Below, piece after piece: positions 3,883-58,681 of a stretch of 64,000 bases of DNA (positions are counted from its first letter, which is position 1; every line of letters begins with the position of its first letter). The stretch is taken from IMG/VR virus record IMGVR_UViG_3300018875_000003, positions 52,981-116,980 of that record, one strand, 5' to 3'. The notes beneath the pieces were generated by a model. That model was not told the origin of the DNA, made no database searches, and saw nothing but the letters and a program-made list of their open reading frames with translations. Source of the DNA: a virus. The translations under genes and the position numbers were made by a program.

Positions 3883-4056
3883 ATGACAAAGCAACTCTTA
3901 TTAAGCAAAGGTGAACACCTGGGCTTCTGCCCAATGAAAGGCGATCTGTATTCGGTAGAATCGGGCCTTTCTATTTTCGGTAAGCCGCAATACCGCATTT
4001 ATTCCCTGAAAGGAGATTCCATCAGTGAACTCATCTCATTCCAAGTCATCCGCTAA
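3883..4056 (+). CDS. Small unknown protein overlapping the RNA polymerase leader
   Basis: The 57-residue protein starts MTKQLLLSKGEHLG and ends ISFQVIR. It is preceded by GGAGG with 7-nt spacing. Its 3' end contains AAAGGAG followed 9 nt later by the GTG at 4025, so it may be translationally coupled to the polymerase gene. It could be a leader peptide or a small partner protein. No family is recognised. Confidence 0.55.
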   Translation: MTKQLLLSKGEHLGFCPMKGDLYSVESGLSIFGKPQYRIYSLKGDSISELISFQVIR

Positions 4057-4126
4057 TCTGTCGTCCCGTCTGTCGTCCGCCGCTCTGTCCAACCAAACTA
4101 AAACTAACCAAAAGGGGTTTTCCACA

Positions 4127-7100: not shown

Positions 7101-7687
7101 GTATGGCGAAAGCTAAGATCGAACGTATCTATAGCGAAGATTGCGATGCGATCACATTCAAGCACCAGGCTGCACTCGCTGCACTGGAATTGTCTTACTC
7201 TGCTACAGATATCGGCTATGTATCCTATATGGTGACATATACGGAGCGTGGTAAAGATGGCAACCGCTCGATCAGCTTCCCTTGGGTTGTGGCTAAGAAA
7301 CAATTCCTGGAGCTGTGCGCGAAGATTGCTAATCGCGAGATCGTGAAGAATCCTTATCTGGTTCCCGCTTCTGAAATCAAAGCAAACTTCCGTATTGCAG
7401 AAGATCCACGCAGCACAGAAGGCAAACACTATGATGGTATGAAGATGGCTGAGGTTATCAAGCAAGCTGGTTCAATCGAGGTTATGTATACGCTGAACGA
7501 GGTAACTGGTGTGTATGGTTACGTGGCATTCGTGCCTGTAGGCAGCAGACTGGTATATGTCGGAGATTTCTATCAGGATCAGGTTGCATTCATGACCGGA
7601 GCTACCCACTTCGAACTGAATGTATCCAATGCAGAAGCAAAAGGACAAGCCATGACCCTGACAGTCTCCAGCGTAGGTCGTAAATAA
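4127..7687 (+). CDS. Single-chain RNA polymerase, YonO/QDE-1-like double-psi beta-barrel family
   Basis: The 1186-residue protein has the catalytic signature of two-barrel RNA polymerases: DNDGD at residues 675-679, in the context EGGADNDGDETFV, which matches the SGGDLDGD-x-(Y/F) core of QDE-1-type polymerases and the DxDGD core of YonO. About 50 residues earlier is RNPAIAKGEGRVLK (626-639), matching the RNP...G(D/E)-R-V-L element of eukaryotic RNA-dependent RNA polymerases. The three Asp of the motif would bind magnesium. YonO of SPbeta is a DNA-dependent RNA polymerase, so a phage transcriptase is the likeliest role. I chose the ATG after AAAGGGG; a GTG at 4025 with AAAGGAG would add 34 Ser-rich residues. 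Codon bias indicates high expression. Confidence 0.78.
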   Translation: MTTTNNNKQAQINKQLAQVNRLFNQAVKGNKVKAEMSELKSASVILDAIATFPGLGVKTKNYEAITAAMAEGHSLRSIMLNPELTGVAKNQYRYFRAFMDAKGDDIPEMVMAPTRKRVRTVSVDLLKHSRNEAGEVVLNAEVNFQSQSQLADAFGSLAADDKSDLYLDMAHVVYIDLNIADQENQELKDLQVEVVRNGFYYSVDGVTHKANFFIQTASQARQLQGIYIAEDFMTIPQAFKKLGHDFLAYCKLSKDGIYTLDITKYLKRPGLSGTSSVSSKAITFPNARISKLANMTTGEYLVESDRHTMAVIEDRFAKITNGTFKAFYNNRVVTVSAVDGVFTAQWKDGRLTKQEVLPMNYLKLGVGDGLVLASESIYWALKAEHGNDSDAWQVRITPFVKGLMVFVPGLRKYYDADIVAFKSAVKGDFRLIADEEGRLDFNIELRIARFAKRPGKKAEYVELPYQFAHVSSITAEQMINVAAPRLEEARNVLSNPALIQKYTGVAHLEDLSKLTTAEAEFMRDRSLVSVFANFMHYAPFTYEDAYMQTRALQLMGQQVDKWVAGTIPVEGEYRFMVQDPYALLQAVADEDGDMIVPASVGLRPHQTFMTARDNKHFVTGPVASFRNPAIAKGEGRVLKGAAPENYVTASAKGAFNSVCIMSCHDLDTFAEGGADNDGDETFVTQVPEIVNSIMGKDGESKFLAMLDLHVGKDGEWASGCPFPMESDEKLTFGAACVDHDGQFKVKFTADQYDDAFIQAVHELSKEYVIRTLNPNKIGQQTNIATRLADAVRKVGYMYAEGVDEFGQAVDRTEAEKQDLLHEIVRMEEMIDLVRLTQGWEIDRAKHGGAYEEALAAELNFINNPPKYAGFQENPKAKRVWIKQAWLSHHKGTEGGIDTGSVMSRVHNHMKAFVQENVIDKSEEIKNDVENNNIIHVLRSEYAIDANKYEALAAVIRSIRASYTADLMNARNKNAEFNKLAEIKYNGNDHAIRMAKAKIERIYSEDCDAITFKHQAALAALELSYSATDIGYVSYMVTYTERGKDGNRSISFPWVVAKKQFLELCAKIANREIVKNPYLVPASEIKANFRIAEDPRSTEGKHYDGMKMAEVIKQAGSIEVMYTLNEVTGVYGYVAFVPVGSRLVYVGDFYQDQVAFMTGATHFELNVSNAEAKGQAMTLTVSSVGRK

Positions 7688-23847: not shown

Positions 23848-23870
23848 GTATGGAGAAAGGAGGAGTCATC

Positions 23871-25745
23871 TTGATTCAAGTTCGCAGTCAATATGAAAAT
23901 GTATACATCAAAGTCCTTGATAACCCCGATACGATCGACTACACACTTTCCAAGGTTAGAAGTCTGCCCGGGCGCGCATTTAATATGCAGACTGGCGAAT
24001 GGATGATCTCCCGTGATCAAGTCGGACCGCTTTTATTCAATTTCAGTAACCAAATTATTTGGATGACGCCGCTCAAAGAAATTGTTGCAGGTCTTGAGAT
24101 ACACGATGAGGTCGTTCAAAAGCATCTGCAATGGGAAGCGGAATCCGAATTTAAAAACTTTAAACTGTCGCTCTATCCTTATCAGAAGGTGGGAGCAAAT
24201 TTCCTGATCGATCGCGGATGCGGAGCTATATTCGATGGATGTGGTCTCGGCAAGACACCGCAGCTGATTGGCGCCTGCGAAAAGATATTCGAGCGTGTTC
24301 GCGGTGGACGTGCGCTGATCGTCACCTTGAACTCACTGAAACGTCAGTGGGCAAGAGAGATTGAGAAGTTTACCGGTAAGCCAGCAATTCCTGTAACCGG
24401 CACCGCTTCTCAAAGAGCGAAACTAATCAAAGGATTCGCCAGTCATAAGAAGACACAGTACCTGGTGATCAACTATGAGATGTTGCGCGATGATAAACTT
24501 CGTAAGATGATTACGGATATTCCATTCAGCGCTGTTGGACTCGACGAGGCTCAGAAGATTAAGAATGGTGTTACAGACACTCATCTAAAAATGTTCCCGA
24601 GCCAGATTGCCGCAGCAACCCATGAGCTGAAGTATATCCCGCATCGCTTTATTGCAACGGCTACGCCAATGCAGGGCAAGGCAGAGGAAGTGTGGAGCCT
24701 ATTTTACTTTATCGATGAAAACATCCTCGGTAATTGGTATGTCTTTCGTGATAAGTATTGCGAATACGGAACCAAGTTTGGCATCACCGGCTACAAAGAC
24801 CTGGGCGAGCTTTACTACCGAATCGCTCCGTATTTTATACGACGGACAAAAGAGAACCCAGAGGTTCAGCAGCAGCTGCCTACGGTGACGAGTGATCCGA
24901 TTTTCCTTGACATGACCGATAAGCAGCGCCAGCTCCATGACTATCTTCTGGATAAGTACATGGAGGTGAAGGAGACTGCGAAGAAGGTTACATCCAGCCC
25001 GAACCAGTATCAATTTATCGCTGGGAGGAGCATGTCCAAAGACGAAGCCAAGGAGTATTATGATTCCCTTGCGCAAGGCTATCAGATATTCATGCTCAGT
25101 GTTTGTGATTCTCCTGAGCTGCTGGTCATGTCCGATTCATCCATGGCACAGAATGTCCTTAAAGATATTCCGCTGTCAGAGAAAGACCTCAAGTCACCGA
25201 AGGTTGACCACATCGTTCAGTTCTACGAGCAGATGACGTTTGACGAACCCAATTCTAAAGTCGTTATCTTCACGCAGTTCTCGCGGATGGCAATGCTCAT
25301 CCAGAAGAAGCTGAAAAACTCGGTCATCTACCACGGCGGACTCAGTGATAATGCCAAAGAGTTTGCGAAGGATCAATTCGTAAGCAATCCCAATATTAAA
25401 GCGATCGTCTGCACAGATGCCGGAAGCACCGGTCTGAATCTGCAGGTGGCCAACTACATGATCCATGCCGACTTGCCTTGGGATCCAACCCTGGTTGAAC
25501 AGCGAAATGGCCGGATCGATCGCACCGGTAATAAGTTTAGCAACGTAAACATCTATTACACCATCATGAATGGTGGGTATGATGAACATCTGCTGGACAT
25601 CCTGGAGCGAAAATCTACCATGTCCAATATGGTTATTGATGGCGGCAGGGCAACGGCTTCATCGTCCAATATCAGCAAACTGGCCATGGATAAGATGGTC
25701 AAGGATCGTAAGAAGCAAATGAAGCCTGCAGCCGTCCTAAATTAA
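23871..25745 (+). CDS. SNF2-family helicase/ATPase
   Basis: The 624-residue protein has the SNF2 core: an N-terminal region of about 95 residues, motif I DGCGLGKT (about 122-129), motif II DEAQ (225-228), motif III TATPMQG, then the C-terminal lobe with VVIFTQFSRM, TDAGSTGLNLQVA and the arginine-finger motif QRNGRIDRTG. It should use ATP to move along duplex DNA. TTG 23871 is chosen over ATG 23850 because AAAGGAGG lies 7 nt before it and the promoter's start site falls after the ATG. A second, larger SNF2 protein is at 55439. Confidence 0.88.
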   Translation: MIQVRSQYENVYIKVLDNPDTIDYTLSKVRSLPGRAFNMQTGEWMISRDQVGPLLFNFSNQIIWMTPLKEIVAGLEIHDEVVQKHLQWEAESEFKNFKLSLYPYQKVGANFLIDRGCGAIFDGCGLGKTPQLIGACEKIFERVRGGRALIVTLNSLKRQWAREIEKFTGKPAIPVTGTASQRAKLIKGFASHKKTQYLVINYEMLRDDKLRKMITDIPFSAVGLDEAQKIKNGVTDTHLKMFPSQIAAATHELKYIPHRFIATATPMQGKAEEVWSLFYFIDENILGNWYVFRDKYCEYGTKFGITGYKDLGELYYRIAPYFIRRTKENPEVQQQLPTVTSDPIFLDMTDKQRQLHDYLLDKYMEVKETAKKVTSSPNQYQFIAGRSMSKDEAKEYYDSLAQGYQIFMLSVCDSPELLVMSDSSMAQNVLKDIPLSEKDLKSPKVDHIVQFYEQMTFDEPNSKVVIFTQFSRMAMLIQKKLKNSVIYHGGLSDNAKEFAKDQFVSNPNIKAIVCTDAGSTGLNLQVANYMIHADLPWDPTLVEQRNGRIDRTGNKFSNVNIYYTIMNGGYDEHLLDILERKSTMSNMVIDGGRATASSSNISKLAMDKMVKDRKKQMKPAAVLN

Positions 25746-38857: not shown

Positions 38858-38863
38858 ATATAA

Positions 38864-38895
38864 AGGCGCTACGATCGATGTAGCGCCTTTTTTGT
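38864..38895 (+). terminator. Rho-independent terminator
   Basis: AAGGCGCTAC-gatcgat-GTAGCGCCTT is followed by TTTT, a 10-bp perfect stem. Confidence 0.9.
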
Positions 38896-39050: not shown

Positions 39051-39875
39051 ATGAAAATGAACGACGAGCTGCATCCAGATCGCGATCAAATGCGTTTTAT
39101 TGGCGTGACCAAAGATGCGACAACAGCAGGGCCAGGAAAGCGCCTGGAACTGTTTTTGAAAGGTTGTATTCGTGGCATAGTAAATCCATGCGAAGGCTGC
39201 TTCAATCCCTCTACGTGGGAATTTGGAGGTCTACGCCGGGATATGCACATCCAAGAGACAGCCGATATGATTATCCGAGATGCGTGGAATCTTCAAGTTA
39301 CATTTTGCGGCGGTGAGCCGTTGCTTCAAACGCGCAATCTTATTCGATTATGTAAAGAGTTGAAACGCCATAACAAGCGATTCCATATCGTGGTTTATAC
39401 AGCCTATACGCTTGAGAATCTGCTGAATAACGGGATTACTTATCGCATTCGTAAAGGCGATGACGAAGCCGTAAGGGAGACGCTGCTCGCCTATAGCGAA
39501 AGCTGGGACGAGAACAAAGAGCGCTTTACTATTGCCACTCCGGCACAAATCCGACAGCTGCTGGAAGTCATCGATATTCTGGTCGATGGCGACTATCAGT
39601 CGAAATACCGGATTCCGACCGAGAAATATATGAATGACGGTATGTTTATTGGTTCGAGCAACCAACGTGTATTCGATACGCAAAAGACACTTTCTAAAGA
39701 ACCGGCATTTGTTTACCTGCATGCTGACGAGTGGATGGATGAACATTCACGCCTGAAGCATTGTAAGTGCTGCGGTCATGCTTTGCAGATTCAAACGAAC
39801 ACCTATTGCGACGACCTCTGTAAAAAACTGTATCGCAAGCGAGATAAAGAGATGGCTCTGTTAGGTGGTGTCTGA
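39051..39875 (+). CDS. nrdG: NrdG-like radical SAM activase with zinc tail
   Basis: The 274-residue protein has an NrdG-like start (RFIGVTKDATTAGPGKRLELFLKGC) and a cluster-binding motif C39-x7-C47-x2-C50 followed by FNPSTWEFGG, then VTFCGGEPL (GGEP 87-90) for SAM binding. Classical NrdG has C-x3-C-x2-C, so this one has four extra residues in the loop. The C-terminus adds a probable zinc module (HCKCCG...YCDDLCKK). NrdG activates the anaerobic ribonucleotide reductase NrdD, which is not in this window. AGAAGGTG precedes the ATG. Confidence 0.72.
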   Translation: MKMNDELHPDRDQMRFIGVTKDATTAGPGKRLELFLKGCIRGIVNPCEGCFNPSTWEFGGLRRDMHIQETADMIIRDAWNLQVTFCGGEPLLQTRNLIRLCKELKRHNKRFHIVVYTAYTLENLLNNGITYRIRKGDDEAVRETLLAYSESWDENKERFTIATPAQIRQLLEVIDILVDGDYQSKYRIPTEKYMNDGMFIGSSNQRVFDTQKTLSKEPAFVYLHADEWMDEHSRLKHCKCCGHALQIQTNTYCDDLCKKLYRKRDKEMALLGGV

Positions 39876-41110
39876 TGGACGACTTTGATTTCGATGACTT
39901 GGCAGATGTCGTGCCATATGAAGATGATGCACCTGTGATTGATCTGACGCCTGCTCTTGAAGCGGCCGCTGCTGCCGAGATGTCCAGACGCGATCCAAAC
40001 AATACCTTTCTGGCGCTGCGGTCTATTGCGCTGAATCCGCCTGAACTGGGAGCTGAGCTGCCTGATCTTTTCCGTCAGCCCATGCCAGACCTTATACAAA
40101 GCTTTTCTGCTGCTCTTGATGATTTCAACGACATTTATCTGCAGCAGCGCATTACGCCTTATGAGCATACGCAAAACGTACTTGCTCACCGACATTACAA
40201 AGAATTATTGGAGGTTCTTCACATGCCAATCCCTAACCCGAACAAACCTGGTGAAATGGATTACGTGGATTATTCTATCGTCCACAAGACGGTCATGAAT
40301 CCAGATCACATTTATTCTTTTGAGAATATGTCCACACAAAAGGTCGATTTTTCCCTGGCTATTCTGCCGGATGACGATCGCCACATTTACTTCGTGTCGA
40401 AGTTGCCGGAGGAAATCAAAACACCGGTTGAGCGAGATGTGTTCGAGAAGTTAATGTCGGACATCGTTCATGCCGACGCAAACAAGAATTTGCGCATCGA
40501 GCAGACACCCCTATTCAGAGAAATGACCGGACGATCCATTTCCGAATACATTCTTCAGCAGAAACAACAAGGTCGCTTGTTCCTGAAAACCGGAATCCAT
40601 GATTACGACAAAGGGCTGGGCCTGATCCGAGATACTTTATCCGGAGAAGAAGTTGGCGTATTCGAATCCATGCAGATCATTGTCGAGAAGAATCGTGATT
40701 CTAATTATTACTATATCCACGATGTCACGATGTCGATCGGCAATGAAAGCACCATTCTGGATAATATCGATCGGTATGTGTTCGTCTTTTACAACACCGA
40801 TGATAACATCGCCTATTCTCTGACCAATGTTAAGGCTGCCGCACCTGAATCTTCCGTTCTGGCTTCCTTCTCCTTGCGTCTGGAGCCGACCAAGGTATCC
40901 ATTCAGAAGGATATGGATATGACGCAATCGGATATGATCAAGGAGGCATCCAGCTCCCGTGAGAAGCTGAAGAACCTGACTGCCGATGATGTGTTCTATC
41001 CGGAGTACAAAGAGAAGTTCGTTTCCGACCGAAGTGCTATTCTTCGTTCCAGTCAGAAGCGCGCGGAGCAAAACAAACTGGAAGACCTATTTACTGATAT
41101 CGAATTTTAA
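39875..41110 (+). CDS. Unknown 411-aa protein
   Basis: The protein starts MDDFDFDDLADVVPYEDD, overlapping the stop of the NrdG-like gene. The N-terminal 60 residues are acidic and Ala-rich; the remainder looks alpha/beta, with several Asp-rich strands and a charged C-terminal helix (ILRSSQKRAEQNKLEDLF). It does not resemble NrdD. Coupling to the radical SAM gene suggests a shared role. No family is recognised. Confidence 0.65.
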   Translation: MDDFDFDDLADVVPYEDDAPVIDLTPALEAAAAAEMSRRDPNNTFLALRSIALNPPELGAELPDLFRQPMPDLIQSFSAALDDFNDIYLQQRITPYEHTQNVLAHRHYKELLEVLHMPIPNPNKPGEMDYVDYSIVHKTVMNPDHIYSFENMSTQKVDFSLAILPDDDRHIYFVSKLPEEIKTPVERDVFEKLMSDIVHADANKNLRIEQTPLFREMTGRSISEYILQQKQQGRLFLKTGIHDYDKGLGLIRDTLSGEEVGVFESMQIIVEKNRDSNYYYIHDVTMSIGNESTILDNIDRYVFVFYNTDDNIAYSLTNVKAAAPESSVLASFSLRLEPTKVSIQKDMDMTQSDMIKEASSSREKLKNLTADDVFYPEYKEKFVSDRSAILRSSQKRAEQNKLEDLFTDIEF

Positions 41111-41136: not shown

Positions 41137-42780
41137 ATGTCAACTGCTATTCAACAATCATCTGTGGACGAACTTTCTGTGCTGCTTAATTCGCGGCACA
41201 GAGCCATTCTGGTTAAAACTTACGAGGAATCCCGCTTTATCGAAAACTTGAAACACATCGCCCAGGAGAAGGGCTACCAAAACGTATACTTCTGGTCTGT
41301 CACTTCGGGGCTGGTGGATGCCATCACCGGCAAAACAAGAGAGAAAGCGGACAATCCGATTCAGCTTTTCGATGCAATCGCCAAAGACGACAAGCAGAAC
41401 ATGTATGTCATCCGCGACTTCCACGATGTCTGGCCAAATGCGCAGGCGAAGCGTAAAATGCGTGACTGGCTGGAAACGCCAAGCAATGTATACAAACCTA
41501 TCATCCTGACTGCACCGGAAGCATCCATTCCACTGGAGCTGGAAAAACTGATCTCCGTGATCAACTTTGACCTGCCGGATCGTGACCGTGTAACATCACT
41601 GCTCGAAGCCAGCTTGAAGATGCTTCAGAAACAAGAACTGCCTGTTCCCAAAGGGCGCGAATATGATGCGATCGTGCATGCACTGGTGGGAATGACGCAA
41701 AACGAAATCACCAACATCCTGCGCAAATCGATTTCCAAACACAAAGCTATCGTGTTGTCGGAGATCGTGGCTGAGAAAGAACAAGTTATCCGTAAAACCG
41801 GTCTGCTGGAGTATATCACCAAGCTCGGCAACATGGATAATGTCGGCGCAATGGATCGATTTAAAGAATGGGCGGACGATGCGTATTATGCGTTTCATCC
41901 CGAAGCCCGTAACTATAATGTCGATCCGGTTCGTGGCGTGGTTATGGCGGGTGTACCGGGTACCGGTAAATCTCTGACAGCGAAATCCATCGCTCATCAG
42001 TGGAACCTTCCGCTTCTGAAGATGAATATGTCCGACATCATGGACTCCAAAGTCGGCCAATCCGAGAAGAATATCTCTCGTGCATTGAAGCTTGCTGAAC
42101 AGGTGTCTCCGTGTGTTCTCTGGATGGACGAGTTCGAGAAGGGTCTTTCTGGTATGTCCAGCTCTGATAAGTCGGACTCTGGTACCCTCTCCCGCGTGGT
42201 TCAGGAAATCCTGACGTGGCTGTCTGAGAAAGAGAAGCCCGTATTCGTTATTGCCACAGCGAACGATATCACCAAGCTGCCGCCCGAACTGACTCGCGCC
42301 GGTCGTTTCGATGAAATCATGTTCGTCAGTTTGCCGCACACGCAGGAACGCGCGGAGATCCTGGGCATTCACCTAAAGAAGCGCGGATACAAAATCATTG
42401 AAGGCGAGTCGGAGGAACTGGATACATTTAATCAGATCGACCTTCAAGACCTGGCTTCCAAGATGGAAGAGTTCACCGGTGCTGAAATTGAGCAAGCAGT
42501 GTCCGAAGCCGGCCGACGTGCTTATGCTGCTTTCCGCAAGGCACAGCGCAAGTCTCACTATATTGCGCTGGCAGACCTTGAGGAGCAGGCTGAGAAGATC
42601 GTTCCGATCGCTAAGCGAAATCCATCGCTGGTCAATGACCTGCGCGAGTGGGCCAAGCATTCTGCGGTCTGCGTATCCAGTGCAGAGCACAATTATCTGC
42701 ACAATGGACAGGCGTCTACGCCGGAATCGTCTAAAGCAAGCCCGCTTCGCATCCTTGGTGATGAGATCGAATTTAGCTGA
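41137..42780 (+). CDS. Ycf46-type AAA+ ATPase
   Basis: The 547-residue protein has an N-terminal alpha/beta domain (1-200) without a P-loop and a C-terminal AAA+ module: Walker A GVPGTGKS (272-279), Walker [11 protein letters not shown] (D331, E332), [21 protein letters not shown] with sensor 1 and arginine finger, then a helical lid and an acidic tail. This two-domain layout with one dead and one live module is that of Ycf46. DUF1257 (Ycf35) and DUF2997 genes follow at 43257 and 43731. AGGAGG precedes the ATG. Confidence 0.82.
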
Positions 42781-42795
42781 TAAGGAAGTGAATAT

Positions 42796-43158
42796 ATGGC
42801 TTACTGTCGTGAAGAAGCCCGCCGTAAAGCGCTGGAGATGATCCAGCCGCTGCGGCCAGACACACAATCTCAGCTCAGCCGAGCGATTAATTTCGCCTTG
42901 GAAGAGCTTCGTGATCTGGAAAGACAGATGAAAGAGATTAACGAAAAGCTTCAAGATAACGTCATCTATTCTGAATTGAAGCCGCCGTTCATGGAATCCT
43001 TCAATGTGTTCGCAGCAAATGCTTCTTACCTTATTCAAAGGACGTATACGGAGGAAGAGCTGACTCAGCTGCCAACAGACGTTTATAACGAAGTCGTCGA
43101 GTCACAAAAAAAGCGCGCAGGTCTGCTGCGTGCTATAGCCGGAAAATATAATCTGTAA
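42796..43158 (+). CDS. Coiled-coil protein in the Ycf46 cluster
   Basis: The 120-residue protein starts MAYCREEARRKALEMI. A coiled coil (about 30-60, LEELRDLERQMKEINEKL) is followed by a helical end with basic residues. AAGGAAG precedes the ATG 15 bp after the ATPase stop. It may be a structural partner of the ATPase. Confidence 0.62.
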   Translation: MAYCREEARRKALEMIQPLRPDTQSQLSRAINFALEELRDLERQMKEINEKLQDNVIYSELKPPFMESFNVFAANASYLIQRTYTEEELTQLPTDVYNEVVESQKKRAGLLRAIAGKYNL

Positions 43159-43256
43159 CAACCTGGGGAACCACACGGCACGTTTTGGGTGCCGCCGCGG
43201 CAGGCGCATGACGGTGGGGTTAGGGCGCAACCACTATATTTCGGGAGGAATTATCC
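43159..43256 (+). other. GC-rich structured leader before the DUF1257 gene
   Basis: This 98-bp gap is unusually GC-rich for an intergenic stretch here. It contains CGGCAC-gttttgg-GTGCCG (43178-43196) and further GCCGCGGC and GCGC elements, ending at GGGAGG before the DUF1257 start. It could be an RNA regulator, a processing site or an internal attenuator. I cannot match it to a known riboswitch. Confidence 0.4.
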
Positions 43257-43655
43257 ATGTCTCACTTTCAAGCTTACAAATGTGAAGTCAACAACGTCGA
43301 ATTTTTGAAGAAGGCTCTGCAAGAAATGGGCCTCGGCTTCAAAGAAAATACAACTGTTACGGACTACTACAAACAAACGCGCAACGTTCGTCTGGCTGTC
43401 CTCAACAAAGAAGGTAAACTGGTTCCAATCGGTTTCCAAGAGAACGTCGTGGACGGCAAAGCCAAACTGGAATGTGTAGCGGACTGGTTCATGACTGGCT
43501 TTTCCGAAAAGCAATTCACTAATCAAGTAGCGCAGCTGCACGATAAGTACATGGTTATCGACATGTGTGAAAGCAATGGTTTCTCGATCGACTATGACAC
43601 GATCGCCCGCAACGATAAAGGCGAGCTGGAACTGGTCGCTTCGACCTGGATGTAA
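43257..43655 (+). CDS. DUF1257/Ycf35-like protein
   Basis: The 132-residue protein starts MSHFQAYKCEVNNVEFLKKALQEMG, the hallmark start of DUF1257 (Ycf35). NVRLAVLNKEGKLVPIGFQENVVDG, ADWFMTGFSEKQF and GFSIDYDTIARNDKGELEL follow as in the family. It is a small alpha/beta protein of unknown function found next to Ycf46-type ATPases and DUF2997 in many bacteria. GGGAGG precedes the ATG. The conserved neighbours strengthen the call. Confidence 0.82.
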   Translation: MSHFQAYKCEVNNVEFLKKALQEMGLGFKENTTVTDYYKQTRNVRLAVLNKEGKLVPIGFQENVVDGKAKLECVADWFMTGFSEKQFTNQVAQLHDKYMVIDMCESNGFSIDYDTIARNDKGELELVASTWM

Positions 43656-43730
43656 TCTGCCCGGCTCCGGTAACGGGGCCAACCCTTTTCATCTAAATCA
43701 TCATACTTAAATTTACGGAGGTAGCTTAAC

Positions 43731-43937
43731 ATGGAAGAGAAAAAAGTGAAATTTACAATCGGTAAAAGCGGCGGCGTCGCTTTCGAAGTACTCAACGGAC
43801 AAGGTGAAGATTGCACCAAGGTTACAGAGAACATCGAACTGCACCTGAATAACGTCGGTACGCAAATCGATGAAGGCAAGAAGCCTGAGTATTATGATGG
43901 CGGCGGATTTACCGACGTCTTCAACGACATGAATTAA
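43731..43937 (+). CDS. DUF2997-like protein
   Basis: The 68-residue protein starts MEEKKVKFTIGKSGGVAFEV, then NGQGEDCTKVTENIELHLNNVG and PEYYDGG, matching the short DUF2997 pattern (beta strands, G-x-G-x-x-C-x-x-x-T, helix). DUF2997 is typically adjacent to DUF1257. The single conserved Cys may be functional. CGGAGG precedes the ATG. Confidence 0.75.
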   Translation: MEEKKVKFTIGKSGGVAFEVLNGQGEDCTKVTENIELHLNNVGTQIDEGKKPEYYDGGGFTDVFNDMN

Positions 43938-43938
43938 C

Positions 43939-44214
43939 ATGCAGGATCTCGAAACTCAGCTGCAGATTGTTAAGCATGCTGCTCAAATCCAGGATGACCG
44001 CAGAAAAGATGAGATTGATATTCAATCGAGTATCATCGAAGACCAGAAAGCGGAAATCGAGCGACTTCGTGGCGCATTGAGCGAATGTATTGAGGATTTC
44101 TATATCGTTGCTTCTGCTGGCTATCATGAAGCGATGATCGAAGAAGCCAACAGTGCAGCGGTTAGAGTCCGAGAAGTCTTGCAAAAAGGAAGTGTGACAG
44201 ATGCAAGTAAATGA
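43939..44214 (+). CDS. Coiled-coil protein
   Basis: The 91-residue protein starts MQDLETQLQIVKHAAQIQD one base after the DUF2997 stop, so reinitiation is likely. It is a near-continuous coiled coil (about 1-55) with a helical end. It overlaps the following membrane-protein gene by 14 nt. Confidence 0.6.
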   Translation: MQDLETQLQIVKHAAQIQDDRRKDEIDIQSSIIEDQKAEIERLRGALSECIEDFYIVASAGYHEAMIEEANSAAVRVREVLQKGSVTDASK

Positions 44215-44530
44215 TTTTGTTACCTATGCTTCGCTGTCTCTTCTTTTTAGCATACTCATTGCGGTCGCGAAGATACTTCCTCGCGATCCGCAGTATGATA
44301 AAAAGCATAAACGCGGAACATTCATCACTGTAATTATGTTCATTTCAAATATCGTGTATACCGCAGCATTCGGTTGGAACGAGGTAGCTCAATCTGCTAC
44401 GGAATGGACACTGGATATTATCAATGCCATTGGCATAATGATCGGTCTACGTTTGATGTTCGCCGGCGTTATGCTTAAAGGCAAAACGAAGGAGAACAAT
44501 CGTGACCGAACAACAGAAGAAAACGACTAG
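44201..44530 (+). CDS. Three-span membrane protein
   Basis: The 109-residue protein has hydrophobic spans at about residues 8-26, 42-60 and 78-94, a basic loop (DPQYDKKHKRG) and a charged tail. AAGGAAG precedes the ATG. It overlaps the ThyX-like gene by 29 nt. No family is recognised. Confidence 0.62.
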   Translation: MQVNDFVTYASLSLLFSILIAVAKILPRDPQYDKKHKRGTFITVIMFISNIVYTAAFGWNEVAQSATEWTLDIINAIGIMIGLRLMFAGVMLKGKTKENNRDRTTEEND

Positions 44531-46085
44531 ACGTACTACAAAGAAAGTTGCCGAGCAGCCGGAGTTTCAGCTGACCGCGCCTGATCTGTCTCCATTCGTA
44601 ACGAATCCGGACGGAAATGTATATGCAATCACCAATCTGCCGGAAGAGTTTATCGCCGTGCTGTTTGCCTGGGTGAGTCGTTCACCGAAGTCATTCAAGG
44701 AGCATCTGCAGCAAGCGATTCAAGATGGGTTAATCGATGCGGCGGACGTGAATGCCGCTGGTTTTGAAAAGCTGTCAGAGAAAGCCAAAGCATTCCATGA
44801 GAAATGGACGGTTGCCTATGGCCATTCCTCTGTCGCTGAGCATGCTGTATCGCATGTCGGTATCGAGAAGGTGTCCAGATTGGCCTCTGCGGAGCTGGAG
44901 CTGTCCAACACCTTCTACTCCATTACCGAGTACTCGCAGCGCTACCAGAAGCCGCAGCGCGGTGACTGGCACAATCCATTGCCACAGTCGATCCCGAATC
45001 CGAATGGTATCACTCGTGATATGGTTCCGAATCCGCTTTGGCAGGAGTACGAAGACTTTATGAACGAATGCTATGATGTATTCGAGCAGCTGATCGACGG
45101 CGTATACAAACACCTGAAGGAAAAGGATAAAGACTTATTCCATCCTTCATCTGGTTTGTCGGAAGCGAAGCGCGAGAGCGATCTGATGAAGCTTGCCTTC
45201 GAAGATGCTCGCTACGTGCTGCCGATGGCTATGTATACGCAGCTTGGCATGACTGCAAACGGTCGCAGTTGGCGCGATGGCATTGCCGAGATGGGCGCAA
45301 GCCGTTATCCGGAAGTGAAGCAGCTGGCTGATGACCTGAAAACGGAGATCACCAAGATTCTGCCGACTCTGCTCAAGCATGCGACACCTTCTCAATATAA
45401 GGTGAACAGCAAGCAGCGCACGGAATGGTTGATGGCGGATCAGCCCGTTGCAGACTACGCGGTGAATAGCCAGGTTGTCCTGCTGGATGGGCCAGACCCA
45501 ACGCATGCGATCAATTCGGTTATTGCCGGCGCAATCTCTGAAGTAACAGGTATTCCTTATACGGAAGCTTACAGTCGCGCCCGTGTCATGGAAGACAAAA
45601 CGGGTTTCCTGCAGGAGATCCTGTTCGAAATAGGCAACCATGACGCGCCGCCCGAATATTTCCGTCAGGTAGATTTCAAATTCGACCTGCTGGTTTCCGA
45701 AGCCAACTGGCATCAGTTGCTGCGTCATAATCGGAAGACCGACTTTGTATTCAGTCAGCCTTCTCCTGATCATGGCGTGACCGTGCCGCCGCGCATTATC
45801 GAAGCTGGGCTGCAGGGGCTGCTGTTCGATCTGGCTGAGAAAGCAGAGCAGCTGTTCAAGAAGCTGGCTTCTGAGAAGGAGACCGAAGCTGCGGCGCCGT
45901 ACATCATTCTGAATGCGTTCAGGCGCCGCGTTATTGCTCACTTCGATCTGTGGGAGGCTTACCATCTGATTAACCTCAGAACGAGCGAGGAAGCCCAGTG
46001 GGATATTCGCCAAACGTTCGAGGAAGTATATCGCCAGCTGTTCCAGCTGTATCCGTTTTTAATCGGTTCAGCAAAAAGACGATAG
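44502..46085 (+). CDS. Tandem ThyX-like protein with altered active sites
   Basis: The 527-residue protein starts at GTG after AAGGAG. Two ThyX-like halves can be seen. In the first, GHSSVAEHAVSHVGIEKVSR is followed by YSITEYSQRYQ, which aligns with ThyX S-x-N-E-x-S-x-R-Y but with Ser135-Asn136-Thr137 where RHR belongs; VLPMAMYTQLGMTANGRSWRD follows. In the second, LLRHNRKTDFVFSQPSP keeps RH but not RHR, and AFRRRVIAHFDLWEAYHLINLR follows. ThyX makes dTMP with FAD; canonical activity is doubtful here. Length is about twice that of ThyX. Confidence 0.68.
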   Translation: MTEQQKKTTRRTTKKVAEQPEFQLTAPDLSPFVTNPDGNVYAITNLPEEFIAVLFAWVSRSPKSFKEHLQQAIQDGLIDAADVNAAGFEKLSEKAKAFHEKWTVAYGHSSVAEHAVSHVGIEKVSRLASAELELSNTFYSITEYSQRYQKPQRGDWHNPLPQSIPNPNGITRDMVPNPLWQEYEDFMNECYDVFEQLIDGVYKHLKEKDKDLFHPSSGLSEAKRESDLMKLAFEDARYVLPMAMYTQLGMTANGRSWRDGIAEMGASRYPEVKQLADDLKTEITKILPTLLKHATPSQYKVNSKQRTEWLMADQPVADYAVNSQVVLLDGPDPTHAINSVIAGAISEVTGIPYTEAYSRARVMEDKTGFLQEILFEIGNHDAPPEYFRQVDFKFDLLVSEANWHQLLRHNRKTDFVFSQPSPDHGVTVPPRIIEAGLQGLLFDLAEKAEQLFKKLASEKETEAAAPYIILNAFRRRVIAHFDLWEAYHLINLRTSEEAQWDIRQTFEEVYRQLFQLYPFLIGSAKRR

Positions 46086-53714: not shown

Positions 53715-54167
53715 GTGGAGCTTATTAGTGCTTATATGTATAATCAAATCCCTTTTCAAACCATCGGTATTGCGCCTATAACGATCAACAATCTGATCTC
53801 TATGGGTTGGGTTGAAGACGAACGAAAGTCGGCAGCATATGCCATTATACACCGCCGCCTGAAAATTCAGGAGCAGTATTATAAGATGACCCTGCGCTTC
53901 AAGCGGATGCCGGACAACACCCTCGAACTGGATACTCCAGCGCCATTTATGATCGTACTCAGCGATCTGAAGGAGATTGAGCCACGTCCGCGTTTTGTTG
54001 ACACCGCCGTTTATCACAGCAAGAACGTCAAAACGGTGTCTGGCTATTTTGAGCAAGGCATCCCAACCGAATTGATCGAATCGCTGCACCTTGAACTGAA
54101 ATCGTGCCTGTCATATAAAAAAGAAGAGCCGTGGGTTATCGGCGTTGACTGGGGGAATAAGAAATGA
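53715..54167 (+). CDS. Unknown protein before the DUF6094-like gene
   Basis: The 150-residue protein starts at GTG (MELISAYMYNQIPFQTIG) with GGAGG 8 nt upstream. The middle has basic helices (IHRRLKIQEQYYKMTLRFKRM) and the end VIGVDWGNKK. It overlaps the next gene by 4 nt (ATGA). It probably works with the methyltransferase-like protein and the large helicase that follow. Confidence 0.65.
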   Translation: MELISAYMYNQIPFQTIGIAPITINNLISMGWVEDERKSAAYAIIHRRLKIQEQYYKMTLRFKRMPDNTLELDTPAPFMIVLSDLKEIEPRPRFVDTAVYHSKNVKTVSGYFEQGIPTELIESLHLELKSCLSYKKEEPWVIGVDWGNKK

Positions 54168-55426
54168 GTTTTGCACCAACACAAATGAACGCGGCACTTT
54201 CAAAGCGAACCGCACGGATCCTACGCACCTATCTTGATTTTCCATATAACAAACCTATTACTGCTCTCGATTTTAAAGCATTCGATGGACAACCGCTCAA
54301 CGAGCTGACTTTATGCGCCAGTGAGCGGTTTTTGTATGGCGCCGAGCCCGCACAGTTTATGGCCAAGCAGGCTAGTGAGTTTTTCGAACGTGTTGCAATT
54401 GCGACCTATAAGAGCGAATCCAAGATCAGTAACGATGTGTTCTCTCTGGCTCTCGTCAATCCGGTAGTTAGCCCTTACTTTATCAATGACATCTTTTCTT
54501 CTTACGATCCATTTCAGATTCCTGACTTTGAGGAAGAAGAGCGCCAGCGTCAGAAAAGCCTGGAGTCTACAAAGGATCATCTCGATCTCAACCAACTGGA
54601 GATGACTGCTGAAGAAATCGAACAGCGCAAAGCCGACATGGAAGAGCGTATTCAGAAAGCCATCGAAGAACGTAACATTGCGTATCGCCGCGCGCTGCGT
54701 GAGCAAGAGAAACGCACAGCTGCGTATCGTGATGATAAGCTGATGCTAGTGAATGCTACCCGCTATTTGAAGCCGGGCGGCATCCTGGTCATGATTACGC
54801 CGAAGGAGTTTATCGACGGACAGATCGCATTCAAACTGGCTAACAGTTATGAGGATATTCAAATCCTGCGACTGGAAGACGAAGAATATGAAGATCAGCG
54901 CAAGTGTGTGATTCTGGCCAAGAGACGGGCGAGGAACGTTCGTCAAGATACACTGCCTTATGAAATCATGCAGACGAAATACAAGTCGTATAAAGATATT
55001 CCAGTCATCTCATTTCAAGAGACACCAGCATACAAAGTGCCGGAGTCGCACAAGGATCAGGTCGTCAACTTCCGTATTGGACCGGTTACGCCTGATGAGG
55101 TCATGCACATGTTTAAGAAATCGGCTGTCGTTGAAAATTTTGCGATTCAGCACGGCATCACACTCGACAATCAAATACCAAAGCCGCCGACGCAGCTGCA
55201 TAAGGGTCACGTTTCCCTGACGCTGGCGAGCGGGCTGCTGAATGGATATATCGGAACAGGTCACGATCGACACCTGGTAAAAGGTTCTGTCGTGAAGAAG
55301 TCTACGGAAGTCACAGAGGAAGAAGACACAGAAGCTGGCACCGAAGTTAAAACAGTGGAGCGTGAGTATTTCCACATTGGAATTAAATATCTCGATCGTA
55401 ACGGGAATTTTCATAAATTGCTATAA
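54164..55426 (+). CDS. DUF6094-like methyltransferase fold, catalytically degenerate
   Basis: The 420-residue protein has the outline of DUF6094 proteins. ITALDFKAFDG (32-42) stands where the SAM-binding LDPxxGxG motif belongs, and FSLALVNPVV (93-102) where NPPY belongs. A charged coiled insert (120-190) follows, then YLKPGGILVMITPKEF (201-216) and RLEDEEYEDQRKCVIL, both as in the family. Loss of the glycines and of NPPY argues against methylation. A DNA-binding or scaffold role with the helicase is inferred. Confidence 0.62.
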   Translation: MSFAPTQMNAALSKRTARILRTYLDFPYNKPITALDFKAFDGQPLNELTLCASERFLYGAEPAQFMAKQASEFFERVAIATYKSESKISNDVFSLALVNPVVSPYFINDIFSSYDPFQIPDFEEEERQRQKSLESTKDHLDLNQLEMTAEEIEQRKADMEERIQKAIEERNIAYRRALREQEKRTAAYRDDKLMLVNATRYLKPGGILVMITPKEFIDGQIAFKLANSYEDIQILRLEDEEYEDQRKCVILAKRRARNVRQDTLPYEIMQTKYKSYKDIPVISFQETPAYKVPESHKDQVVNFRIGPVTPDEVMHMFKKSAVVENFAIQHGITLDNQIPKPPTQLHKGHVSLTLASGLLNGYIGTGHDRHLVKGSVVKKSTEVTEEEDTEAGTEVKTVEREYFHIGIKYLDRNGNFHKLL

Positions 55427-55438
55427 GGAGGAAATAGC

Positions 55439-58400
55439 GTGGCTATACGAGTATCTGATGAGCTTTTTAGGCTCCATTTTCATGCGCGCGGTCCTGGGGC
55501 GCTGACTCAGACCTATGTTGACTTGCTTGTTATGGAAGAAATCCGGGCGAACTCATTCAATCTATATCTGGCGAATACAATGAATATCGATTCGAAGCAA
55601 AAGATATTTGCTTATGACATGGCTGAAGTCAAAACCGGTGTGATTCAACCTGCAGGTGATGAACAAGTCCAAAGATCGGAGTCCGTTAACATCTTCATTG
55701 AGGAGAAGGATTCCTTTGATAAATACGAGCAGCGCATTGATGATATGACGAACATCTTGTTTGTCTCGAAGAGAGCCAAGAATGATGTAAAAAAGAAAGA
55801 GATGCGCCGCATCGAAAACATTGCTCGCATCGAAAATGGCATGCGTTCGCTGCCGCCAGAACCTGAATTAATCTTGGCCTGGAATGGTGACACGCATTCG
55901 GAAATCTACCGCGTTCTGAACGACCGGTATAATACACCGATGCTGCCGGAATGGAAAGACGATATCGTTCAGACATGTATCGATCTCGGCTATTACAGAC
56001 CGCTTGTGGTAAAAAGCTACGGCCGTGATTATGATCTGGAGGCTGGACTGCTGCGCATCACAGAAGAAGATCTCGAAGAGATTATTTCCGAAGGCATTCG
56101 CTCCTATTCGATGCCGTTTGCGATTCTCGATGACGGCCCAACGGAAGAAGAATCCGTGCTAAAAGACTGCACAACACTGGATGTGTATCTGGAGAACTTC
56201 GCCGGCGAACTTGGCCAGCGTGTACAGGAGAACTCACAGCTCCGCTTTGATCCTATGACGCAGGAGCATCACCGTTCACTCTGGCATGCGAATATGCACG
56301 CCAATACCAAAGGCGTAACCGGCCTGTTCCCGCCGCAAGCAGACGTTGTAATGGGCTGTGCGAATACGTTGGCCGAGGACAAATATGTCTTCCTGATCGG
56401 GGAGATGGGTAGCGGGAAGACACCAATGGGTCTGACGATTCCATATGTGACCCATGCCGTTCGTTCCGGTACCGATAAACCGAAGCCGTTCCGGACGCTG
56501 GTTTTTGTTCCGGCGATCATGGTAGACAAATGGCAGCGTGAGATCGAAGAACGCGTTCCTGATGCAAAGGTATACCGCATCAACACCTGGAAGGATGTTC
56601 ATGCTCTTCGTAACAAACCGTATCGTCCGACCGAGATCGAGTATTACGTAATGAGTTCCGATGCTGCGAAGCAGACGTATCCGCTTGAGCCAGTTATGGA
56701 TTTCCGTCATGGCTGCGACGACAACAATGACTATGATGAGGTCATCGCCAAGAAGCGCGCCGGAAATCAAGTCCGCATTCGCCCAACAGTATCGACAACT
56801 TTCTTCAACGGCAATCCGGTCGATACGGTAATCCCTGGTCCGGAAGCGATGTATTGCCCGCAGTGCGGATCGCCAATCAAGAAGACCAAGACGAAGTATT
56901 CCGACGAGCATTACTTCCAGCTGCGCCGCGGCAAGGACAAGTGGTCGTGGAATATGAACCGTGAGAATTATCGCTGCCGCAGCATGGTCAGTGTGGAGAA
57001 TCTGCCGAAGAACCAGCGTCAGCCAGGAGCTACCGAGAAACAAGAATGCGGATACGTGTTCTGGAGCGCCAAGAAGCTGCCTCAGCGTTCGCTGGAGCGT
57101 AAGGTGTCTCCGGCATGGTATCTGAATAAACACCTTCGTCGTGGGTTCTTCGAGTACCTGATTGCCGATGAAGTACATGAGTACAAGTCCGGTGACTCCG
57201 ATCGTGCGAATGCGTTCGGACAACTGATCAATCACACGAATAAACAAATCCTGCTGACCGGTACGCTGCTGGGCGGTATGGCGCGCGATATCTTCTATCT
57301 GATCGCACGTCTGGACTCCAAGAAGCTCAAGATCGAAGGCATCAGCTATGACGATGAAAGCCTATTTGTGGAGCGCTACGGCGTTTATGAGCGTTCTCAA
57401 ACCGAGTTCTCCGATGACCGTAAAGGCAAGAAGCGGAAGAAGCAGCTTCCAGGCGTTTCACCGCAGGTATTCCCGCGTTTCCTGATGAGCAACTGCGCAT
57501 TCATCGAGCTGGGTGATCTGGGCTACGCGCTGCCGCCGTATCGAGAGATTCCGATGTTCGTCGATATGGAAGAGGAGCATCGTCAGAAATATGATGAGCT
57601 GGAAGGCAACATCCAGCGAGCCATGGGGCAAGGCGGAATGAAACATCTGTCTACCTACATCACCAAGCTGTATCAGTATGCCGACATGCCATTCCGTCAG
57701 GATCCGGTAACGTATCTGGATGAGCGGGATGTCGAAAAAGTGTTGTGCCAGCCGTACAGTTTCCCGGAAGAGTATACGCCGAACAAGTACTACAACTTGC
57801 AGGGGCTGCTTGAGGAGCAGGTGGAGCAGCGTGGCCGCAAGGTTCTGATCTATGCGCGATTCACTGGCGGCGACAACGGGGTGGATACCTGGTTGTATGA
57901 GCGCCTTAAACAAGACGGCTATAACGTAGGCATCCTGCGTTCGTCCGGCACGTATGACGGCATGAAGATGCCGAAGCAAGAGGACCGTGAATCTTGGCTG
58001 CGCAAGAAGATGGAGCAGCATGATTGGGATGTCCTCGTGACAAACTCCCGTCTCGTAGCTGTCGGTCTCGACTTGTTGATGTTCCCGCACATTCACTTCT
58101 ACCAAATGGATTACAGTGCCTACAACTACATGCAGGCTTCCCGCCGATCCTGGCGGATTAAGCAAACGCAGGAAGTTGAGGTTAGTACGTCCGTGTATCG
58201 CAATACAATCCAAGCAGACGTTCTGGAAAGCATTGCGAAGAAGATTGATGCAGCAATGGCGCTCCAAGGTAAATTCTCTGAAGAAGGTCTGCGAGCAATG
58301 GCCGATACTGGCGATGGCATCAACGCAATAGCCAAGAAGCTGATGAATGAAGGTCGTCTGGACAATATCAACTCTATCGAAGATCGCTGGAAGCGGATCA

Positions 58401-58681
58401 ACGCATCCTACGAGCAGCTGCAGAACAGTCAGTACGAAGGATACGACTCTTACGAGATGAACCCACTGGGTATCGAGAAAGTCCGCGAGATTCAGAAGGG
58501 GCTCGTCTCCAAGATGCGAATCGATGTGGCTGCCGGCAGAATCACGCAAGAGACGCTGGAAGACTACATGGATCATATCGAGAGTGTCTTCCGCGTGGTC
58601 GAAGATGTGCGTGAATATAACAAAGGCCTGCGCAAAGCTGACCGGATCGTTGAGGGTCAGGGCGAGCTGGCGTTGTTCTAA
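55439..58681 (+). CDS. Large SNF2-like helicase with zinc insertion
   Basis: The 1080-residue protein starts at GTG after AAGGAGG. The N-terminal 310 residues are of unknown fold. The helicase core has GEMGSGKT (about 321-328), VFVPAIMVDKWQREIE, DEVH (about 577), LLTGTLLGG, then VLIYARFTGG and QASRRSWRIKQ. Between motifs Ia and II lies an insertion with C-x2-C and later Cys residues (MYCPQCGSPIKK...YRCRSM...QECGYVFW), a probable zinc ribbon. It follows the DUF6094-like gene by 12 bp, an association that suggests one DNA-processing complex. Confidence 0.82.
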   Translation: MAIRVSDELFRLHFHARGPGALTQTYVDLLVMEEIRANSFNLYLANTMNIDSKQKIFAYDMAEVKTGVIQPAGDEQVQRSESVNIFIEEKDSFDKYEQRIDDMTNILFVSKRAKNDVKKKEMRRIENIARIENGMRSLPPEPELILAWNGDTHSEIYRVLNDRYNTPMLPEWKDDIVQTCIDLGYYRPLVVKSYGRDYDLEAGLLRITEEDLEEIISEGIRSYSMPFAILDDGPTEEESVLKDCTTLDVYLENFAGELGQRVQENSQLRFDPMTQEHHRSLWHANMHANTKGVTGLFPPQADVVMGCANTLAEDKYVFLIGEMGSGKTPMGLTIPYVTHAVRSGTDKPKPFRTLVFVPAIMVDKWQREIEERVPDAKVYRINTWKDVHALRNKPYRPTEIEYYVMSSDAAKQTYPLEPVMDFRHGCDDNNDYDEVIAKKRAGNQVRIRPTVSTTFFNGNPVDTVIPGPEAMYCPQCGSPIKKTKTKYSDEHYFQLRRGKDKWSWNMNRENYRCRSMVSVENLPKNQRQPGATEKQECGYVFWSAKKLPQRSLERKVSPAWYLNKHLRRGFFEYLIADEVHEYKSGDSDRANAFGQLINHTNKQILLTGTLLGGMARDIFYLIARLDSKKLKIEGISYDDESLFVERYGVYERSQTEFSDDRKGKKRKKQLPGVSPQVFPRFLMSNCAFIELGDLGYALPPYREIPMFVDMEEEHRQKYDELEGNIQRAMGQGGMKHLSTYITKLYQYADMPFRQDPVTYLDERDVEKVLCQPYSFPEEYTPNKYYNLQGLLEEQVEQRGRKVLIYARFTGGDNGVDTWLYERLKQDGYNVGILRSSGTYDGMKMPKQEDRESWLRKKMEQHDWDVLVTNSRLVAVGLDLLMFPHIHFYQMDYSAYNYMQASRRSWRIKQTQEVEVSTSVYRNTIQADVLESIAKKIDAAMALQGKFSEEGLRAMADTGDGINAIAKKLMNEGRLDNINSIEDRWKRINASYEQLQNSQYEGYDSYEMNPLGIEKVREIQKGLVSKMRIDVAAGRITQETLEDYMDHIESVFRVVEDVREYNKGLRKADRIVEGQGELALF

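What the first reader, a model, noticed from the sequence alone, without database searches (positions are those of the whole stretch)
41137..43937. Ycf46 AAA+ ATPase with DUF1257 (Ycf35) and DUF2997 partners
An AAA+ protein with one dead and one live module is followed by a coiled-coil protein, a DUF1257 protein and a DUF2997 protein, then another coiled coil and a membrane protein. The ATPase-DUF1257-DUF2997 association is known from cyanobacteria and plastids and occurs in other bacteria, yet its function is unresolved. Its presence on a mobile replicon suggests a portable remodelling machine.
Basis: partly seen in the sequence, partly recalled or inferred. Interest (0 to 1): 0.75.

Follow-up and report, generated by a model that had tools for sequence, protein, structure and literature searches.

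The report
Phage-borne AAA+ machine with iron-sulfur partner
A phage-plasmid of Bacillales-type bacteria carries, in one operon, a ring-type ATPase, two small proteins of unknown function also kept by cyanobacteria and plastids, and a radical-SAM iron-sulfur protein; the same parts recur across distant bacteria, which points to a portable protein-remodelling machine tied to iron-sulfur chemistry whose target is still unknown.

Summary
Window 41137-42780 encodes a two-module AAA+ ATPase (degenerate first module, p97-like live second one), 43257-43655 a DUF1257 protein and 43731-43937 a DUF2997 protein. The gene set recurs in unrelated phages, Bacillales phage-plasmids, plasmids and chromosomes of many phyla; one viral gene fuses DUF1257 to DUF2997.

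The operon appears to start at 39051 (terminator-like stem-loop at 38862-38890) with a radical SAM protein of the glycyl-radical-activase type. Such genes lie beside the ATPase in 24 of 80 cellular loci (about 1.2 expected), often 2-40 bp away, from at least two radical SAM subfamilies; no other neighbour family exceeded 5 of 118 proteins. Cyanobacteria instead have DUF2997-DUF1257-[4Fe-4S] ferredoxin. No anaerobic ribonucleotide reductase or glycyl radical enzyme was found in 12 mobile records, including the window's.

Best reading: an ATP-driven remodelling machine with a DUF1257/DUF2997 adaptor, coupled to an iron-sulfur redox or radical partner. The parts list is well supported; mechanism and client are inferred. 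The partner is optional: six trio phages lack it. The window's radical SAM groups with true NrdG, so a separate NrdG-like role remains possible.

The parts
38862..38890 (+). terminator-like stem-loop (12 bp stem, T tail) that seems to bound the operon upstream
   Evidence: consensus scan only, total number of hits not above shuffles, but this is the longest stem in the region
39051..39875 (+). radical SAM / 4Fe-4S single-cluster protein of the glycyl-radical-activase (NrdG/PFL-AE) type; unusual Cx7CxxC cluster motif (residues 39-50), GGEP at 87, C-terminal cysteine cluster (238-257)
   Evidence: Pfam Fer4_12 E 7.9e-23; NrdG model 82 bits against cut-off 126; motifs; cysteines invariant in 20 relatives
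39875..41110 (+). 411-aa protein of unknown family, conserved in the Bacillales phage-plasmid clade
   Evidence: no Pfam/PHROG/NCBIfam match; family F21 in 8 loci; overlaps the radical SAM gene by 1 base
41137..42780 (+). two-module AAA+ ATPase, Ycf46-like: degenerate module 1-222, live p97-D2-like module from 223
42796..43158 (+). 120-aa protein of unknown family found beside the ATPase in the phage-plasmid clade
   Evidence: family F22 in 8 loci; 42% and 35% identity in relatives
43257..43655 (+). DUF1257 (Ycf35) protein
   Evidence: PF06868 E 1.1e-9; AlphaFold model pLDDT 79
43731..43937 (+). DUF2997 protein with the family's invariant Gly14 and Cys28
   Evidence: PF11211 E 6.8e-10; 42-sequence alignment
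43939..44214 (+). 91-aa ORF, no family match; membership of the machine not supported
   Evidence: its counterpart was not among the genes found in the three closest relatives
44201..44530 (+). 109-aa putative membrane protein, in some relatives placed between DUF1257 and DUF2997
   Evidence: L010; similar family F30 in 5 loci
44502..46085 (+). flavin-dependent thymidylate synthase ThyX, co-transcribed by position, probably a neighbour and not a part
   Evidence: PF02511 E 3.6e-45; overlaps the previous gene

Best explanation
It is a phage-borne copy of a widespread protein-remodelling machine. A p97-like AAA+ ring (live second module) does the ATP-driven work. Its degenerate first module probably receives an adaptor made of DUF1257 and DUF2997, which selects the client. 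An iron-sulfur partner works with it: a radical SAM activase-type protein here and in many anaerobes, plasmids and phage-plasmids, a [4Fe-4S] ferredoxin in cyanobacteria. I think the ring opens or reseats a client so that the iron-sulfur partner can reduce or radical-activate a buried site, as dedicated activases do. On the phage the client is most likely an enzyme of nucleotide or DNA metabolism. Shown here by computation: the parts, their conserved linkage, a natural DUF1257-DUF2997 fusion, the recurrent iron-sulfur neighbour. Inferred: hexamer, adaptor role, opening of a client, the client itself.
For: Trio families and recurrence: of 80 cellular loci with this ATPase type 44 have DUF1257, 30 DUF2997 and 25 both within 3.5 kb; of 91 viral and plasmid loci 38, 66 and 34, where 66 includes about 29 divergent DUF2997-like proteins. 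Natural DUF1257-DUF2997 fusion L037:4185-4766. All 20 genomes tested first carry DUF2997, including cyanobacteria where it is not adjacent; control 1 of 14. Radical SAM next to the ATPase in 24 of 80 cellular loci against 1.2 expected, mostly same strand with gaps of 2-40 bp, and in 17 of 91 mobile loci; the label needs 17 changes on the ATPase tree; two distinct subfamilies. No other neighbour family exceeds 5 of 118 proteins. DUF1257-ATPase-DUF2997-radical SAM lie in a row in Sporomusa (L181). Cyanobacterial DUF2997-DUF1257-ferredoxin cluster in 6 genomes. No NrdD and no glycyl radical domain in 12 mobile records; the phage-plasmid relative has its own aerobic class Ib reductase. Chaperone link: GrpE-Hsp70 beside the set on a Pseudanabaena plasmid; published two-hybrid contact of the linked ferredoxin Fed7 with a DnaJ-like protein (PMC4284462).
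Against: The iron-sulfur partner is optional: six well-sequenced trio phages have no radical SAM gene. The ATPase family also exists without DUF2997: 15 of 20 genomes whose ATPase lacks adjacent DUFs have none (draft genomes). The window's radical SAM groups with true NrdG in the tree (97 support), so it may simply serve a host reductase. No physical interaction was tested; only single chains could be folded; DUF2997 did not fold with confidence (pLDDT 51). The chance expectation treats loci as independent although they are related.
Confidence: 0.45

Rival explanations
1. Operon of two unrelated things: an ATPase-DUF1257-DUF2997 remodeller plus a NrdG-derived activase that serves anaerobic dNTP synthesis of the host, grouped with ThyX because all are early nucleotide-metabolism genes.
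For: The window's radical SAM clade groups with true NrdG; ThyX, UvrD and primase follow; the gene is 1.26 kb from the ATPase with one gene between.
Against: Below the NrdG cut-off and with a Cx7CxxC motif; no NrdD in the record or 11 other mobile records; the phage-plasmid relative has an aerobic class Ib reductase; the same pairing recurs in distant lineages with other radical SAM subfamilies.
Confidence: 0.25
2. The radical SAM enzyme post-translationally modifies DUF2997 (or DUF1257), for example at the invariant Cys28 or Gly25 region, and the AAA+ protein loads or unloads the modified protein.
For: Small partner with invariant Cys and Gly in 42 sequences; DUF2997-radical SAM neighbours in L181, L146, L170, L101.
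Against: Cys28 is also kept in sets without a radical SAM gene; cyanobacteria have a ferredoxin instead.
Confidence: 0.15
3. A clamp-loader-like or DNA-remodelling complex for phage replication.
For: First module weakly resembles RFC5; PHROG clamp-loader hits; replication genes nearby.
Against: PHROG hits are to the general AAA core; DUF1257-PCNA matches are at chance (E 0.25); the family's presence in cyanobacteria and plastids and its iron-sulfur neighbours are not explained.
Confidence: 0.08
4. An anti-phage or anti-competitor defence module.
For: IetA models hit the AAA core (E 4e-33).
Against: Only the general AAA domain matches; no IetS protease in the cassette; no PADLOC hit for the DUFs or the radical SAM protein; found in plastids and cyanobacterial genomes.
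Confidence: 0.05

Closest known systems
Ycf46 (Slr0374) of cyanobacteria and plastids
   Same: two-module AAA+ protein, degenerate first half, beside a DUF1257 gene in the 18 cyanobacterial loci of one clade
   Different: about 35% identity; in cyanobacteria DUF2997 lies elsewhere with a ferredoxin; reported role in CO2 use (PMC7496141) has no obvious counterpart on a phage
cyanobacterial cluster DUF2997-Ycf35-Fed7
   Same: DUF2997 and DUF1257 next to a [4Fe-4S] protein (PMC4284462)
   Different: ferredoxin instead of radical SAM protein; no ATPase in the cluster
p97/Cdc48 type AAA+ unfoldases
   Same: live module closest to the D2 ring of VCP-like ATPases among solved structures
   Different: one live ring only, no p97 N domain, basic residue in pore loop 1 (SKVG at 304) in this clade
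NrdG / pyruvate formate-lyase activases
   Same: radical SAM core, GGEP motif, Fer4_12
   Different: below the NrdG cut-off, Cx7CxxC in this clade, no glycyl radical enzyme or NrdD on the replicon

Membership tests
DUF1257 (Ycf35, PF06868) | match over Pfam gathering score | tested here: met
   38.9 bits, cut-off 22.2
DUF2997 (PF11211) | match over Pfam gathering score | tested here: met
   39.1 bits, cut-off 24.1; invariant Gly and Cys present
Ycf46-type AAA+ | live C-terminal AAA+ with Walker A, Walker B, sensor 1 and arginine finger | tested here: met
Ycf46-type AAA+ | N-terminal half is a degenerate AAA module without P-loop | tested here: inconclusive
   no P-loop; remote AAA likeness E 1.4e-4 but probability 53% and RFC5 E 0.001; no structure model made
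Ycf46-type AAA+ | falls with cyanobacterial Ycf46 in a tree | tested here: inconclusive
   same family by full-length alignment, but the window clade is separate from the cyanobacterial clade (FastTree only)
Radical SAM superfamily | three-cysteine cluster motif and GGE motif | tested here: met
   Cx7CxxC at 39-50, GGEP at 87; spacing is not the canonical Cx3CxxC
NrdG (anaerobic RNR activase) | score over the curated NrdG cut-off | tested here: not met
   82.3 bits against 126.1
NrdG (anaerobic RNR activase) | NrdD partner on the same replicon | tested here: not met
   none in the 117-kb record or 11 related mobile records; some records may be fragments and a host NrdD is not excluded
Remodelling ATPase complex | ATPase, DUF1257 and DUF2997 bind each other | not testable with these tools
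   only indirect: natural DUF1257-DUF2997 fusion
IetAS defence | IetA-type ATPase with an IetS subtilisin-type partner in the cassette | tested here: not met
   AAA core matches IetA, but no protease among the cassette genes

The most novel reading that the evidence does not exclude
The four genes form a radical-coupled chaperone: the radical SAM protein installs a radical or a cross-link on DUF2997 (or on a client held by DUF1257/DUF2997), and the AAA+ ring opens the client to deliver it. This would be a new way to activate enzymes, with the cyanobacterial ferredoxin version as its non-radical variant and a common function for the orphan plastid genes ycf46 and ycf35.
Probability: 0.15. Interest if true: 0.88.

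Novelty: new variant of a known kind. Interest (0 to 1): 0.62.

Why it matters
ycf46 and ycf35 have been kept in many plastid genomes without a known function. Finding their relatives as a compact operon on phages, repeatedly beside radical SAM or ferredoxin genes, gives a concrete testable idea (an AAA+ machine tied to iron-sulfur chemistry) and small genetic systems to test it in. In my literature searches DUF1257 or DUF2997 appeared in only three papers of the held open-access library; I read passages of one of them (PMC4284462), which describes the ferredoxin cluster and no radical SAM link; the other two I saw by title and start of abstract only.

Tried and rejected
DUF1257 profile against solved structures: only chance-level hits (PCNA E 0.25). 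Fold search of the DUF1257 model: no Foldseek match under E 0.001; best VIA-align Z 6.2 to KA1 domains, below what the tool calls meaningful, so no fold assigned. DUF2997 profile: nothing; its model was too poor to search. Mixed alignment for folding the natural fusion was misaligned, so the fusion was not folded. tblastn of DUF1257 against phage records found nothing although HMM searches of the same phages did: BLAST is too insensitive here. Third radical-SAM-like neighbour family (L031, L032, L057; CxxxCxxC) has no Pfam match and only E 0.003 to one NCBIfam radical SAM model, so it is not counted. The 113-aa actinophage 'DUF2997' proteins come from an iterated HMM and do not reach Pfam, so counts that include them are marked. 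L113's radical SAM call is an overlapping ORF and L163's is on the opposite strand; without them 22 of 80, the figure used for the chance estimate. For L158 the script picked a wrong ATPase ORF; its radical SAM, ATPase, a weak DUF1257 and DUF2997 are contiguous.

Full report
WHAT IS THERE. The window is bases 52981-116980 of a 117-kb virus record. At the stated place lie an AAA+ gene (41137-42780), a 120-aa gene (42796-43158), a DUF1257 gene (43257-43655) and a DUF2997 gene (43731-43937), all on the + strand with small gaps. Pfam assigns AAA (E 1e-30), DUF1257 (E 1.1e-9) and DUF2997 (E 6.8e-10), all above their cut-offs. The live AAA+ module has all catalytic motifs and is closest to the p97/Cdc48 D2 ring among solved structures. 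The first half carries no P-loop; it resembles the last part of the live module (E 1.4e-4, probability 53%) and RFC5, an AAA+ clamp-loader subunit (E 0.001). So 'one dead, one live module' is likely but the dead half rests on remote similarity.

THE OPERON IS LARGER. Two genes upstream belong to the same run: a radical SAM / 4Fe-4S protein (39051-39875) whose stop overlaps the start of a 411-aa gene (39875-41110), which ends 26 bases before the ATPase. A 12-bp terminator-like hairpin with a T tail stands just before the radical SAM gene (38862-38890). The nine nearest ATPases (the window and eight viral contigs) all have this radical SAM gene upstream; in the four I compared gene by gene (L009-L011 and the P. 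urinalis plasmid) it is separated by the 411-aa gene or its homologue. The radical SAM protein is of the glycyl-radical-activase type, but scores 82 bits against a NrdG cut-off of 126, has the spacing Cx7CxxC and a C-terminal cysteine cluster. No NrdD or glycyl radical domain was found in 12 mobile records, and the closest complete relative, a 215-kb Paenibacillus urinalis replicon with capsid, terminase and ParM, has an aerobic class Ib reductase. It is thus a phage-plasmid, and the radical SAM gene has no known client on it.

RECURRENCE. In phages the order ATPase - middle gene - DUF1257 - DUF2997 is seen in Aeromonas, Rhodobacter and Rhizobium phages, and with an extra small gene in Agrobacterium and Pseudomonas phages. 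A profile scan of viral contigs and of one genome per species gave 80 loci each. Within 3.5 kb of the ATPase, 44 of 80 cellular loci have DUF1257, 30 DUF2997, 25 both; of 91 viral and plasmid loci 38, 66 and 34 (the 66 include about 29 divergent DUF2997-like proteins of actinophages, of which the one tested is not recognised by Pfam). One viral gene is a DUF1257-DUF2997 fusion (L037:4185-4766), the best sequence evidence that the two proteins touch. All 20 genomes of a first set carry DUF2997 somewhere, including six cyanobacteria where it is not next to the ATPase; among 14 control genomes only Synechococcus has it. That set was chosen mostly from loci with the DUFs. In a second set, chosen because the DUFs were not adjacent, only 5 of 20 have DUF2997. 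So the ATPase family is modular and the trio is one common form of it.

THE IRON-SULFUR PARTNER. A radical SAM gene lies beside the ATPase in 24 of 80 cellular and 17 of 91 mobile loci. Two cellular cases are doubtful (one overlapping ORF, one opposite strand). From 172 Fer4_12 hits in about 96.5 Mb of 20 of these genomes one expects 1.2 in 80 loci; 22 or more would have a probability of about 1e-21 if loci were independent, which they are not. On the ATPase tree the label needs 17 changes, so the association arose or was lost many times (FastTree). The gaps are typically 2-40 bp on the same strand. Two subfamilies take the place: NrdG/PFL-AE-like (15 cellular loci) and, in Planctomycetota and Verrucomicrobiota, a longer activase-like one (9 loci). 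A scan of 118 other neighbours found no family in more than 5. Unasked, a radical SAM gene fetched as an outgroup in a Chloroflexi genome proved to lie 13 bases before another ATPase of this kind (L222). In cyanobacteria, six genomes show DUF2997 - DUF1257 - [4Fe-4S] ferredoxin as a separate cluster, as published for fed7 (PMC4284462), with the ATPase next to another DUF1257 copy. In Synechocystis ssl1263, fed7 and ycf35 are co-regulated by SigD (PMC8875361), and Fed7 binds a DnaJ-like protein in a two-hybrid assay (PMC4284462). A Pseudanabaena plasmid carries GrpE and Hsp70 beside DUF1257, DUF2997 and the ATPase, and a cyanobacterial chromosome has DUF2997 shortly before an Hsp70 gene (L202).

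LIMITS OF THAT LINK. Six sequenced trio phages contain no radical SAM gene at all (for one of them, Firecracker, only a remote DUF2997-like gene and no DUF1257 was found), so the partner is optional or supplied by the host. The window's radical SAM protein groups with true NrdG genes, one of which stands beside what reads by eye as a NrdD ATP-cone (L215), in a quick tree (support 97). A separate NrdG-like role in the window is therefore a serious rival, even though the wider pattern speaks for a functional tie.

STRUCTURES. DUF1257 (window copy) folds as an alpha/beta domain with a long C-terminal helix, pLDDT 79, pTM 0.66, without a convincing match in the PDB. DUF2997 gave only a beta-hairpin plus helix at pLDDT 51. 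Its Gly14 and Cys28 are invariant in 42 sequences. Complexes could not be predicted with the tools.

HOW IT PROBABLY WORKS. From family knowledge, classical AAA+ proteins form hexamers and pull on or remodel protein clients. I infer that DUF1257 and DUF2997 form the adaptor on the degenerate ring, and that the iron-sulfur protein acts on the exposed client, either as reductant (ferredoxin) or by radical chemistry (radical SAM). For the phage, a client in nucleotide or DNA metabolism is suggested only by the neighbours ThyX, UvrD-type helicase and primase. Each of these steps is inference; the shown part is the parts list and its linkage.

NOVELTY. The families and the ATPase-DUF1257 pairing are known, and the cyanobacterial ferredoxin cluster is published. 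The recurrent radical SAM partner, the phage-plasmid operon and the DUF1257-DUF2997 fusion I did not find described; only three papers in the held open-access library mention DUF1257 or DUF2997. I rate it a new variant of a known kind (AAA+ remodelling machine), with function open.

Noticed in passing
L037:4185-4766: Natural fusion of DUF1257 and DUF2997 in one 193-aa viral protein, upstream of a Ycf46-like ATPase.
   Followed up: partly
window 39051-39875: Radical SAM protein with Cx7CxxC instead of Cx3CxxC and five cysteines in its C-terminal tail (238-257), a possible treble-clef zinc finger; the longer spacing is shared by the phage-plasmid relatives in the alignment.
   Followed up: partly
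L031:6740-7687, L032:6641-7531, L057:8658-9773: A further protein family with a CxxxCxxCYV motif lies downstream of the ATPase in one viral clade; possibly a third radical SAM type, but no Pfam match.
   Followed up: partly
window 42046-42066 (residues 304-310 of the ATPase): Pore loop 1 reads SKVG or SRVG in the Bacillales phage-plasmid clade where other relatives have an aliphatic or aromatic residue (LVG, YVG, WVG).
   Followed up: no
window 54164-58681: A DUF6094 methyltransferase gene followed by a 1080-aa SNF2-type helicase, plus another SNF2 helicase at 23850-25745; the pair resembles parts of defence or antirestriction systems.
   Followed up: no
window 4025-7687 and 4046-7465 (opposite strand): A 1220-aa ORF without any Pfam match is covered by a 1139-aa open frame on the other strand.
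   Followed up: no
L003, L059 and related actinophage loci: ATPase followed by a 270-aa protein and a roughly 113-aa protein only remotely like DUF2997 in 25-29 phage loci; may be a DUF1257-free version of the machine.
   Followed up: partly
L218:1933-2556: In a Richelia genome a NrdG-like radical SAM gene lies next to a gene that reads like Rubisco activase, another AAA+ protein (by eye only).
   Followed up: no
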